Assembly (NCBI RefSeq): GCF_001579805.1
Contig: NZ_CP014546.1
Coordinates: forward strand, 3,224,001-3,288,000
Reading direction: 5' to 3'
DNA length: 64,000 nt
Source of the DNA: Pseudomonas azotoformans
Lineage (GTDB): Bacteria > Pseudomonadota > Gammaproteobacteria > Pseudomonadales > Pseudomonadaceae
In this document: one piece after another, positions 59,269 through 64,000 of the stretch
Position numbering within the stretch: the stretch's first letter is position 1
Layout of the letters: each line of letters begins with the position of its first letter
Translations under genes and position numbers: made by a program
The notes under the pieces: generated by a model
What the model saw: only the letters and a program-made list of their open reading frames with translations
Told to the model about the DNA's origin: nothing
The model's database searches: none

Positions 59269-60201
59269 TCAGCCAGCCTTGAGTACGTTGTACTTCGCTG
59301 AACACACCTCATCCAAAAACTTCACCACAGTCCCCATGCACGCCTGGCGTTCTTCCACATGGGGCATGTGGCTGGAGTCTTCAAACAGCGCCCATCGCAC
59401 ATCGGCGATTTCATCCAGGAACGGCTTGACCACCAGCGGCGTGGCCTCGTCGTGTCGGCCGGAGATCACCAGCGTCGGCACATTGATCGCCGACAGACGG
59501 CCCGTGGACTTCCAGTCTTTCAAGCTGCCGATCACATGGAATTCGGTCGGGCCGCTCATGGCGTGGTACACCGTCGGGTCTGCATCGACTGCGGCAAATG
59601 TGCGCGCTACTTCCTCCGGCCACGGGATGACTCGGCACACGTGCTGGTCATAAAACACCCGTGATGCAGCGAGGTATTCCGGGTCCTGGTAAGTGCCGGC
59701 GGCTTCGTGTTTGAGCAGGGTTTCATGCACACCTTCCGGCAACAATTTGCGCAGTCGGTTGGCTTCGCTGACCCAGGTGCGCATGCACGTCGGCGAGTTG
59801 GCGGGGATAAAGGCGCGCAGGCCCTTGGGCTGCAGGATTGCGTGTTCACTGCCGAGCATGCCGCCCCAGGATTGGCCGAGGATCGCGTAGTTATCGCTGA
59901 TCTGCAGGTGGTCCAGCAGGTTGTTGAGTTCTTCGAGGAACAGGCCCACGGTCCAGAATGACGGGTCTTTTTCGGGGAGATGAGTGGAGCGGCCGTTGCC
60001 CAGCTGATCGTAGTGGATCACGGCATGGCCGCTGGCGGCGACGTCCTTGAAGGCGTCGACATAATCGTGGGTGCATCCGGGGCCGCCGTGGATAACCACC
60101 AGGGGAGTGCGGCCGCTCGACAAGTCACCGGTGACGCGGTACCAGGTTTGGTAAGCGCCAAACGCCGCATACCCTTCGCGGATTTTTTCGATGAATTCCA
60201 T
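59269..60201 (-). CDS. Proline iminopeptidase-family hydrolase (PipA-like)
   Basis: A 310-aa alpha/beta hydrolase. It has the oxyanion motif VVIHGGPGCTHDY, nucleophile Ser in ILGQSWGGMLGSEHAI, acid in ISGRHDEATPL and His in FEDSSHMPHVEE. It matches proline iminopeptidase/amino-acid amidase proteins that stand next to plant-signal LuxR regulators. A lux-box-like palindrome (60262-60281) lies 60 bases upstream, between it and the luxR gene, so it is the likely main target. Confidence 0.9.
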   Translation of the reverse strand: MEFIEKIREGYAAFGAYQTWYRVTGDLSSGRTPLVVIHGGPGCTHDYVDAFKDVAASGHAVIHYDQLGNGRSTHLPEKDPSFWTVGLFLEELNNLLDHLQISDNYAILGQSWGGMLGSEHAILQPKGLRAFIPANSPTCMRTWVSEANRLRKLLPEGVHETLLKHEAAGTYQDPEYLAASRVFYDQHVCRVIPWPEEVARTFAAVDADPTVYHAMSGPTEFHVIGSLKDWKSTGRLSAINVPTLVISGRHDEATPLVVKPFLDEIADVRWALFEDSSHMPHVEERQACMGTVVKFLDEVCSAKYNVLKAG

Positions 60202-60261
60202 TTCGTACCCTGCTCTGAAAAAAGGATCAGGGACACGATAATGCGTGGGCGAAGTTTAAGT

Positions 60262-60281
60262 AACTAGCAAAACAGCTAGGT
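60262..60281 (-). promoter_or_regulatory. lux-box-like palindrome 1 (peptidase promoter)
   Basis: On the minus strand ACCTAGCTGTTTTGCTAGTT: 20 bases with ACCTA/TAGTT arms and an inner GC...GC pair, in the 92-base gap upstream of the 59269-60201 peptidase gene. It matches palindrome 2 in length and arms. Confidence 0.75.
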
Positions 60282-60293
60282 TTTGCCCACCGG

Positions 60294-61079
60294 TCAGTCT
60301 TCGAGCAGGCGGTAATGGGTGGCGCGCACCACCGCCTGCACGCGATTCTTGGCCCCCAGCTTGTGCATCGCCGAGGCCAGGTGCAAGGTAACCACCGCCA
60401 GCGAGCGGCTCAATTGCGTGGCGATTTCGGCAGCGGTCAGCCCGTCGGCGGCCCATTTGAGGCACTCGCGCTCGCGTTTGGTCAGGTGAATATGCGGATA
60501 AGTGCGCAGCTCCTTGCTGAACAGCGGGTAGGCCGCTTCCTGCAAGGCATGGGAAATCAGGCTGAAATCCGACAGGGTCTGCTGTGCATCCTGCAACACT
60601 GTGTGCGCTTTGCCCGTGCGCAGGCCAGTCAGCGAGGCGAAGCCGCCACGGGGCAGGTGGATCGGCACGCTGACGCCGCAGGTCAATTGCTGGTCGTGCA
60701 AGTAGGAAGAAACCGGCGCATGGCAGGGATCGATGATCTTTTGCAGTGGGGTATCGGCCTTGACGTCGTAGGACCACACGAACGGTGACACCGTGCTCAG
60801 GGCCAGATGTTGCACCGGGTCGATCTGGTAGAACCCTTCGCTGCACCACAGGGCATGCCAGTCAGGCGGGGTATTGCGCAGAGCGAGCACCGACGGAGTG
60901 ATCAATGCGCCGTCCTGGTCCATCGGCACCGGGGTGTAGTCATACACCAATGCATCGAAGCCCAGTTGTTGGGCGAGGATGAAGGTATTGTCCATCTGCT
61001 CGTCCAGGCTCCTGCCCGGCATCAGGCGGTGATTTAACGCAGTCAGCTTGGCCAGCATCCGTTCGGCTCCCGAATTCAT
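60294..61079 (-). CDS. LuxR solo, plant-signal (PipR/PsoR/OryR) type
   Basis: A 261-aa two-domain LuxR protein without any luxI nearby. The ligand domain has the family run DWHALWCSEGFYQIDPVQ: Trp57, Asp70, Pro71 and Trp85 (TraR numbering) are kept, but Tyr61 is Trp, the exchange typical of LuxR proteins that answer to plant compounds instead of acyl-homoserine lactones. The C-terminal GerE-type helix-turn-helix is LTKRERECLKWAADGLTAAEIA and KLGAKNRVQAVVRA. Flanked by two peptidases and a peptide ABC transporter, as for PipR. The start at 61079 is uncertain; an ATG at 61112 is possible. Confidence 0.88.
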   Translation of the reverse strand: MNSGAERMLAKLTALNHRLMPGRSLDEQMDNTFILAQQLGFDALVYDYTPVPMDQDGALITPSVLALRNTPPDWHALWCSEGFYQIDPVQHLALSTVSPFVWSYDVKADTPLQKIIDPCHAPVSSYLHDQQLTCGVSVPIHLPRGGFASLTGLRTGKAHTVLQDAQQTLSDFSLISHALQEAAYPLFSKELRTYPHIHLTKRERECLKWAADGLTAAEIATQLSRSLAVVTLHLASAMHKLGAKNRVQAVVRATHYRLLED

Positions 61080-62130: not shown

Positions 62131-62133
62131 CGG

Positions 62134-63081
62134 ATGAACCTGGCGCGCTACCGTTTTGTGCTGTCCCGGCCGCTGCAATTGCTGCCGGTGCTGTTTGGCA
62201 TCAGCCTGATCACCTTTGTATTGGTGCGCTCGATTCCCGGCGACCCGGCGCGTGCGCTGCTGGGCTCGCGCAGCACACCGGACGCCTTGCTGAAGATCCG
62301 TGCCCAGTACGGCCTCGACCAGCCGTTGTGGCTGCAATATTTCTACTTTCTGAAGAACCTGCTCAAGGGCGACCTCGGCCAATCGCTGCTGTACAAGGTC
62401 GATGCGCTCAAGCTGATCGTCACGCGCATTGAACCCACGCTGGTGCTGGTACTCGGCAGTGTGCTGCTGGCGCTGTTGATCGCGGTGCCGTTGGCGACCT
62501 TGGCCGCGCGCAACAAGGGCGGCTGGGCGGATAACCTGATTCGTGTCTTCACCACCGTCGGCCTGGGCATGCCGGCGTTCTGGCTGGGGTTGATGTTGAT
62601 CCTGTTGCTGAGTGTGCAGTGGGGTTTGTTTCCGGTGTCGGGCTATGGCCGCACCTGGCTGGACAAGGCGCACCACATGGTTTTGCCCTGCCTGACGATT
62701 GCCCTGGCGCTGTCGGCGGTGCTGGTGCGCAACCTGCGGGCGAGCATGTTGATGGAATTGCAGGCCGACCATGTGACCGCCGCCCGGGCACGTGGATTGT
62801 CGGAAGCCGAGGTGTTTCGTCGCCATGTGTTGCCCAATTCCCTGGTGCCGGCGGTCAACCTGCTGGCGGTCAATATCGGCTGGCTGATCAGCGGCACGGT
62901 GGTGATCGAAAGCCTGTTCGCCATCCCCGGCATCGGCCAATTGCTGGTGCGCGGGATCTTTACCCGCGATTACATGGTGGTGCAGGGCGTGGCCATGGTG
63001 CTGGCCTGCGCGACGGTGATCGTCAACTTCATCGCTGACGTAGCGACGGTGGCCCTTGACCCACGGGTGAAGATGCAATGA
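62134..63081 (+). CDS. Oligopeptide ABC transporter permease (DppB-like)
   Basis: A 315-aa inner-membrane permease of the dipeptide/oligopeptide type with six expected membrane segments: FGISLITFVLVRSIPGDPAR at the N terminus, the EAA loop AARARGLSEAEVFRRHVLPN and VIESLFAIPGIGQLLV. It starts four bases after the peptidase stop and overlaps the next permease gene by four bases, so it is translationally linked. Likely imports peptide-like signals. Confidence 0.92.
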   Translation: MNLARYRFVLSRPLQLLPVLFGISLITFVLVRSIPGDPARALLGSRSTPDALLKIRAQYGLDQPLWLQYFYFLKNLLKGDLGQSLLYKVDALKLIVTRIEPTLVLVLGSVLLALLIAVPLATLAARNKGGWADNLIRVFTTVGLGMPAFWLGLMLILLLSVQWGLFPVSGYGRTWLDKAHHMVLPCLTIALALSAVLVRNLRASMLMELQADHVTAARARGLSEAEVFRRHVLPNSLVPAVNLLAVNIGWLISGTVVIESLFAIPGIGQLLVRGIFTRDYMVVQGVAMVLACATVIVNFIADVATVALDPRVKMQ

Positions 63082-63935
63082 GCAGCCGCCCGTTGATTGC
63101 TCCTTGGCGCTTGCGCCTGCGCTTCGGCTTTCGCAATGGCCGGCTGACGGCGGCGTGGGGCTTGCTGATTCTGCTGGCGTGGCTGGTGCTTGCGCTGTTT
63201 GCACCGTGGATCGCGCCCTACGACCCGATTGCGCAGAACACGGATTTCAGTTTGCTCGGACCCAGCCTGGCTCATCCGTTCGGTACGGATAACTATGGTC
63301 GGGACATCCTTTCGAGGGTGATCTGGGGCGCACGCATTGACCTGCAACTGGCCATCGTCGGGGTGATTTTCCCGTTCATGATCGGCACCTTCATTGGCGC
63401 GGTCTCCGGATACATCGGCGGGCGTTTTGACAGTGTCTGCATGCGTGTGATCGATGTGATCCTGGCATTCCCGTTCCTGGTGCTGATGCTGGCGATCATG
63501 GCCATCCTCGGTCCAGGCTTGAAGAGTTTCTATATCGCCATGGCGCTGGTGGGCTGGGTGTCCTACGCCCGGCTGATCCGCTCACAGATCCTGGTGCTCA
63601 AGGAAAGCGACTTTGCCCTGGCCGCCAAGAGCCTGGGCTTTGGCCATGGGCGGATTCTGTTCCGGCACCTGTTGCCCAATGCGATGTTCGGCTCCATCGT
63701 GTTTTCCATGTCGGACGCGGTATTGGTGTTGCTCAATGGCGCCGCCGTGAGTTACCTGGGCCTGGGCGTGCAACCGCCGACCGCCGAATGGGGCACGATG
63801 GTGGCCGAAGGGCAGGCCTTCATCACCACCGCCTGGTGGATCTGCACCTTTCCGGGGCTGGCCATCGTGACCTTGGCCATGGGCTTCAGCCTGCTCGCTG
63901 ATGGCGTGGCGCAAGTGCTGGGGGATCGTTCATGA
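63078..63935 (+). CDS. Oligopeptide ABC transporter permease (DppC-like)
   Basis: A 285-aa second permease with the DppC signature HPFGTDNYGRDILSRVIWG and the EAA loop AAKSLGFGHGRILFRHLLPN; six membrane segments expected. Its ATG overlaps the dppB-like stop and its stop overlaps the next start (ATGA in both). Confidence 0.92.
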   Translation: MSSRPLIAPWRLRLRFGFRNGRLTAAWGLLILLAWLVLALFAPWIAPYDPIAQNTDFSLLGPSLAHPFGTDNYGRDILSRVIWGARIDLQLAIVGVIFPFMIGTFIGAVSGYIGGRFDSVCMRVIDVILAFPFLVLMLAIMAILGPGLKSFYIAMALVGWVSYARLIRSQILVLKESDFALAAKSLGFGHGRILFRHLLPNAMFGSIVFSMSDAVLVLLNGAAVSYLGLGVQPPTAEWGTMVAEGQAFITTAWWICTFPGLAIVTLAMGFSLLADGVAQVLGDRS

Positions 63936-64000
63936 GCCTGTTGCAGGTGCGCGACCTCAGTGTGATCGCCAATAACGCCGGGCGGGATGTGACCCTGGTT
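63932..64000 (+). CDS. Oligopeptide ABC transporter ATPase (DppD-like), partial
   Basis: Only the first 23 codons are in the window (MSLLQVRDLSVIANNAGRDV...), the typical N terminus of a DppD/OppD ATPase. The start overlaps the dppC-like stop. The Walker motifs lie beyond the window. Confidence 0.8.
   Translation, partial: MSLLQVRDLSVIANNAGRDVTLV

What the first reader, a model, noticed from the sequence alone, without database searches (positions are those of the whole stretch)
59269..64000. Plant-signal LuxR solo with two peptidases and a peptide importer: a PipR-type inter-kingdom sensing locus
Seen: a LuxR solo without luxI, with Trp at the TraR Tyr61 position, flanked by two proline-iminopeptidase-family hydrolases and a dpp-type ABC transporter transcribed away from it. 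Known: PipR of the Populus endophyte Pseudomonas sp. GM79, and related PsoR/OryR/XccR proteins, sit next to pip genes and answer to plant-derived amide/peptide-like compounds rather than acyl-homoserine lactones. Inference: this strain senses a plant compound that the transporter imports and the peptidases process. Here Trp57 is kept, whereas many members have Met, so ligand preference may differ.
Basis: partly seen in the sequence, partly recalled or inferred. Interest (0 to 1): 0.85.

Follow-up and report, generated by a model that had tools for sequence, protein, structure and literature searches.

The report
Pseudomonas PipR-type plant-signal sensing locus
This is an ordinary copy of a known Pseudomonas sensor system thought to import a plant-related small molecule and switch on peptidase genes in response; one of its two peptidase genes reads as interrupted here, probably because of a sequencing error.

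Summary
The observation largely holds: a LuxR solo (pipR, 60294-61058, minus), a proline-iminopeptidase-family gene downstream (pipA, 59269-60201) and a divergent peptidase plus ABC importer operon (aapA-F) running past the window end. No luxI match in the genome. The protein groups with PipR of Pseudomonas sp. GM79, apart from 30 other Pseudomonas LuxR proteins. Two conserved PipR-type boxes precede pipA and aapA. The binding protein beyond the window (AapF) is about 96% identical to the AapF crystallised with the ethanolamine derivative HEHEAA, so HEHEAA-like import is the likeliest input. Two corrections. Trp57 is the Pseudomonas norm (57 of 57 loci, GM79 included), so it suggests no new ligand preference. 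And only one peptidase gene is intact as sequenced: aapA is frameshifted near 61360, alone among 81 loci. The same assembly splits 8 of 150 matched genes, topA among them, so a sequence error is likelier than a real loss. Verdict: new member of a known kind, low interest. If the break is real, the strain would be a natural AapA-less, perhaps over-responsive, variant.

The parts
59269..60201 (-). pipA: proline iminopeptidase-family alpha/beta hydrolase, intact, Ser/Asp/His motifs present
   Evidence: TIGR01250, 247 bits, above cut-off; motifs; 224 of 295 aligned residues identical to GM79 PipA
60262..60281 (-). PipR-type box upstream of pipA, centred about -70.5 from its ATG (GM79: -71.5)
   Evidence: within 3 mismatches of the pattern in 52 of 57 Pseudomonas loci, shuffled control 1 of 285; four of the five misses have 4 mismatches; GM79 position from PMC4981722
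60294..61058 (-). pipR: LuxR solo of the PipR/OryR (PAB) subfamily, 254 aa (ORF open to 61112; longer start not excluded)
   Evidence: 186 of 253 residues identical to GM79 PipR
61139..61158 (-). PipR-type box between pipR and aapA, centred about -93.5 from the aapA ATG (GM79: -91.5); could serve both genes
   Evidence: within 3 mismatches in 56 of 57 Pseudomonas loci in a longer (380-base) stretch, for which no shuffled control was run
61242..62130 (+). aapA: second proline iminopeptidase-family gene, interrupted by a frameshift near 61360 in this assembly
   Evidence: fragment 61348-62130 matches TIGR01250; one frame in 66 of 81 loci, absent in 14, split only here
62134..63081 (+). aapB: Dpp/Opp-type ABC permease
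   Evidence: 89% identical to GM79 AapB
63078..63935 (+). aapC: second ABC permease
   Evidence: 85% identical to GM79 AapC
63932..64000 (+). start of aapD (ATPase, L004:7932-8888); then aapE (ATPase, ends L004:9856) and aapF (binding protein, L004:9892-11406) beyond the window

Best explanation
A Pip system orthologous to that of Pseudomonas sp. GM79. The AapB-F importer takes up a small plant-related compound, most likely the ethanolamine derivative HEHEAA or a close relative (inferred). The compound binds PipR in the cytoplasm (inferred), and PipR activates pipA, and more weakly aapA-F, through the two conserved boxes (sites shown, binding inferred). The peptidases then lower the signal, giving negative feedback (proposed from mutants of GM79, inferred here). 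As sequenced, aapA is frameshifted; this is more likely a sequence error than a real loss.
For: Same gene order and orientation as GM79 (L046), with 74-89% protein identity over the eight genes, aapA counted by its one-frame fragment. Tree: 34 PipR-type rows, GM79 included, on one side of a 100% branch. pip gene downstream in 81 of 81 loci (80 in one frame over most of its length, 1 partial), aapB in 80 of 81, aapF in 78 of 81. Trp at Tyr61 in 81 of 81. Boxes near the places reported for GM79. AapF differs at 18 of 479 aligned residues from PDB 7kz8/7kz9 (counted by eye), and 7KZ9 is described as Pseudomonas sp. PDC86 AapF bound to HEHEAA (PMC11168924, figure-legend passage). Three of four PipR pocket positions named in PMC7301841 (passage) are the same as in GM79.
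Against: PipR itself is only 74% identical to GM79 PipR, and one pocket position (GM79 Lys96) is Ala here. Family members can fail to bind or answer HEHEAA (PMC10134790 on a transporter homologue; PMC7301841 on PsrR; passages). GM79 AapF is only 80% identical to own AapF. The frameshift in aapA removes one part of the model if real.
Confidence: 0.85

Rival explanations
1. The aapA frameshift is real: the strain is a natural AapA-less variant in which PipR signalling is stronger or longer because one signal-degrading peptidase is missing.
For: 14 of 81 loci lack aapA next to pipR, so the system can exist without it. In GM79, aapA mutation raises pipA-gfp expression (PMC4981722, text read). The other genes of the operon are open as sequenced.
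Against: Split in 1 of 81 loci only, the closest relative P. reactans being intact. The same assembly splits 8 of 150 matched genes against G017, including topA, while 2 genes are split on the G017 side alone. Six of the eight are net one-base length changes of the same kind next to runs of 3-4 equal bases. Against this weight: two of the eight concern only the first 25-33 residues and may be something else.
Confidence: 0.2
2. An AHL-eavesdropping LuxR solo that only happens to lie beside peptidase genes.
For: It has an autoinducer-binding domain and keeps five of the six AHL-pocket residues.
Against: Trp replaces Tyr61. It sits in the PipR clade, separate from 30 other Pseudomonas LuxR proteins, 8 of them near luxI. 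The importer is conserved, which AHLs do not need (PMC4981722).
Confidence: 0.04
3. A PipR system tuned to another plant or peptide compound than HEHEAA.
For: The pocket position equal to GM79 Lys96 is Ala here and takes seven residues in Pseudomonas. SHS peptide and protein hydrolysates also induce GM79 PipR (PMC4981722). Other effectors for the family are thought likely (PMC10134790).
Against: AapF is about 96% identical to the HEHEAA-bound AapF. Trp57, Trp61, Thr and His of the pocket are as in GM79.
Confidence: 0.3

Closest known systems
PipR/PipA/AapA-F system of Pseudomonas sp. GM79 (PMC4981722)
   Same: Gene content, order and orientation; Trp/Trp at the TraR 57/61 positions; both boxes similar in sequence and at near-equal distances
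   Different: Protein identities 74-89%, AapF 80%; pocket position Lys96 is Ala; aapA interrupted in this assembly
AapF of Pseudomonas sp. PDC86 (PDB 7kz8/7kz9)
   Same: 18 differences in 479 aligned residues (by eye)
   Different: Only the binding protein can be compared; contact residues could not be read with these tools
PAB LuxR solos of Enterobacterales and Rhizobiales (PsrR, NesR type)
   Same: Clade, adjacent pip gene, importer genes, Trp61
   Different: Met at position 57 in all 23 loci examined; 7 of 8 enterobacterial loci lack aapA. PsrR and NesR themselves were not among the sequences compared
OryR/XccR of Xanthomonas
   Same: From papers: pip neighbour, plant response, Trp61 (passages)
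   Different: Not compared here: no named Xanthomonas locus was among the 80 kept; an APC-family transporter gene in place of the ABC importer (PMC4981722)

Membership tests
PipR/OryR (PAB) LuxR solos | Autoinducer-binding plus LuxR HTH domains | tested here: met
   PF03472 91.6 bits, PF00196 56 bits
PipR/OryR (PAB) LuxR solos | Solo: no cognate luxI | tested here: met
   0 matches in the own genome (14 control genomes rang in none); the same search rings in 11 of 59 Pseudomonas genomes
PipR/OryR (PAB) LuxR solos | Trp at the TraR Tyr61 position | tested here: met
   Trp in 81 of 81 loci, own included
PipR/OryR (PAB) LuxR solos | Adjacent proline iminopeptidase gene | tested here: met
PipR/OryR (PAB) LuxR solos | Phylogenetic placement with characterised members, away from AHL receptors | tested here: met
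   one side of a 100% (SH-aLRT) branch with GM79 PipR; quick tree, no bootstrap, long branches among the other rows; named AHL receptors and Xanthomonas members not in it
GM79-type Pip system | Divergent aapA-F operon with ABC peptide importer and binding protein | tested here: met
GM79-type Pip system | Both peptidases AapA and PipA encoded intact | tested here: inconclusive
   pipA intact; aapA in two frames in this assembly, probably a sequence error
GM79-type Pip system | Inverted-repeat box near -71 of pipA and near -91 of aapA | tested here: met
   the search pattern was drawn from the two own sites
GM79-type Pip system | pipA activated by leaf macerate or HEHEAA, not by AHLs | not testable with these tools
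   Needs reporter assays
GM79-type Pip system | AapF binds HEHEAA | not testable with these tools
   About 96% identity to the HEHEAA-bound AapF makes it likely

The most novel reading that the evidence does not exclude
The strain carries a real aapA loss on top of an otherwise complete Pip system with an Ala at the variable pocket position: a natural gain-of-response PipR variant in which one branch of the signal-degrading feedback is gone.
Probability: 0.15. Interest if true: 0.4.

Novelty: new member of a known kind. Interest (0 to 1): 0.2.

Why it matters
It adds a member from a fluorescent Pseudomonas whose binding protein is nearly that of the solved HEHEAA complex. It also shows that Trp57 versus Met57 separates the Pseudomonas members from the enterobacterial and rhizobial ones among the 81 loci examined, rather than marking unusual strains. 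Beyond that the locus is ordinary.

Tried and rejected
Rejected: Trp57 as a sign of a new ligand class. A wide PipR regulon by box search: only three sites in the genome are within one mismatch of the pattern, two of them in this locus; the pattern was built from those two sites, and the backward-read control also gave one site. The third site lies upstream of a signal-peptidase-like gene (name by eye) and is most likely chance.

Led nowhere: the two PNAS papers on HEHEAA and AapF are not held; no held paper has both AapF and PipR; a search for PDC86, PipR, AapF or 'ethanolamine derivative' gave 582 papers, 20 listed, none newly read; a search for proline iminopeptidase, frameshift and luxR gave four papers, seen as a listing only. 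The plasmid search gave matches in 638 records, all under 60% identity, not pursued. The genome's species was not established: the search followed a guess from memory and did not settle it.

Not done: structure prediction, a bootstrapped tree, any Xanthomonas comparison, the third protein search.
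Full report
Locus. The 3' end of the window holds, in order, pipA (59269-60201, minus), pipR (60294-61058, minus, open to 61112), then aapA (61242-62130, plus), aapB (62134-63081) and aapC (63078-63935). Beyond the window the operon goes on with two ATPases and a family-5 binding protein, AapF (L004:9892-11406). PipR has an autoinducer-binding and a LuxR DNA-binding domain. The own genome (6,859,618 bases, one contig) has three autoinducer-binding proteins and no luxI match (where the 14 control genomes also rang in none); the same luxI search rings in 11 of 59 Pseudomonas genomes.

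Family. One of them is Pseudomonas sp. GM79 (L046), source of the characterised PipR. In a tree of 64 LuxR proteins, the 34 PipR-type rows that I chose from the 81 loci (own, GM79, P. reactans, Kosakonia, Rhizobium and others) form one side of a branch with 100% SH-aLRT support, opposite 30 other Pseudomonas LuxR proteins. Eight of those 30 lie within about 2 kb of a luxI match. The tree was the quick method without bootstrap, several of the other rows have long branches and the program warns of them, and named AHL receptors and Xanthomonas OryR/XccR were not in it. The nearest row is P. reactans (248 of 254 residues); GM79 PipR shares 186 of 253. PipR at E <= 1e-40 was found in 8 of 57 genomes searched, own included, all of the same genus.

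Synteny. Over the 81 loci a pip gene follows pipR in 81 (one only partial), aapB is found in 80 and aapF in 78; L069 has neither, L068 lies at a contig end, and L040 lacks a match to aapF. These loci were picked as the best PipR matches, so the counts say nothing of weaker relatives.

Pocket. Trp stands at the TraR Tyr61 position in 81 of 81 loci. Trp57 is kept in 57 of 57 Pseudomonas loci and the Paucimonas MAG, and is Met in all 8 enterobacterial and all 15 rhizobial loci. PMC4981722 and PMC7301841 (passages) say the same of GM79 PipR. Of four pocket positions that PMC7301841 contrasts between PipR and PsrR, three (Thr, Trp, His) are as in GM79; the one at Lys96 is Ala here and takes seven residues among the Pseudomonas loci, two of which have a gap there.

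Promoters. Inverted-repeat boxes lie at 60262-60281 and 61139-61158 (minus orientation). The window holds no other match within two mismatches, against a shuffle mean of 0.05; the pattern was drawn from these two sites. They are conserved: within 3 mismatches downstream of pipR in 52 of 57 Pseudomonas loci, with 1 of 285 shuffled regions matching, and upstream in 56 of 57 (a longer stretch, no shuffled control). Four of the five downstream misses have 4 mismatches and L069 has none close. The distances to pipA and aapA are near those reported for GM79 (-71.5 and -91.5; PMC4981722). At one mismatch the whole genome has one further site, and the backward control one.

Ligand. Own AapF differs from the chain of PDB 7kz8/7kz9 at 18 of 479 aligned residues (counted by eye). 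PMC11168924 (a figure-legend passage) describes 7KZ9 as Pseudomonas sp. PDC86 AapF bound to HEHEAA. AapF of GM79 is 80% identical to own AapF (403 of 504). HEHEAA import is therefore likely but not shown. PMC10134790 (passage) warns that a close transporter homologue did not bind HEHEAA, and PMC7301841 (passages) reports no PsrR-dependent response to it.

Interrupted aapA. GM79 AapA matches the window in two frames. The ATG-61242 frame stops at 61371. Among 81 loci, aapA is in one frame in 66, absent in 14 and split only here. The 120 best relatives listed for the fragment 61348-62130 are all 282-320 aa long (2914 found). To judge whether the break is real, 196 kb of the own genome, 168,186 bases of it aligned, were compared with an unnamed close relative, G017. 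At DNA level 19 frame-changing clusters lie inside long ORFs of one side or the other. The protein test is stricter: of 180 G017 genes, 30 had no match, 139 were intact, 3 partial and 8 split on the own side; in reverse 6 of 160 own genes were split, 4 of them genes already broken on the own side and 2 split on the G017 side. Two of the eight concern only the first 25-33 residues and are weak cases. Intact G017 homologues of six of the eight were searched: DNA topoisomerase I, MtnA, 5-oxoprolinase subunit PxpA and a PunC-type transporter match above cut-off, two others only below it. About 5% of genes split, topA among them (essential in most bacteria, recalled), points to sequence errors. It is not proof; reads were not available.

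Mechanism. The best reading is the GM79 model (PMC4981722, text read): importer-dependent uptake, PipR activation of pipA, feedback through the peptidases. Shown here: gene content, boxes, family, AapF similarity. Inferred: ligand, binding, regulation, feedback.

Papers seen: PMC4981722 parts 1-3 of 6; PMC8546723 part 1 of 9 and passages; PMC10134790, PMC7301841 and PMC11168924 passages; others as search listings only.

Noticed in passing
window 3846 to about 6550: topA (DNA topoisomerase I) is frameshifted near 5750 in this assembly while intact in G017; a sign of sequence errors.
   Followed up: partly
window 55552-56737: A transporter gene reads in two frames; its intact G017 homologue matches purine nucleoside transporter PunC above cut-off. 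It lies beside a LysR-type regulator, a possible nucleoside channel and a possible uracil/xanthine permease (last three named by eye only).
   Followed up: partly
L004:15266-16219 (C1:3295266-3296219): mtnA is also split in this assembly.
   Followed up: partly
L055, L056, L061, L065, L066, L067, L069 and 7 of 8 enterobacterial loci: PipR loci without aapA next to pipR, a second architecture of the system.
   Followed up: no
L040, about 2700-5500: Pseudomonas sp. ANT_H4 has a partial aapE match and no aapF match in its pip locus, although the locus is not at a contig end.
   Followed up: no
L151:1501-1520 (C1:1696225-1696244): A third box-like site one mismatch from the pattern; probably chance.
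   Followed up: partly
plasmid records H1-H20: PipR-like matches on plasmids of Rahnella, Rhizobium, Klebsiella variicola and others, all under 60% identity; gene context not looked at.
   Followed up: no
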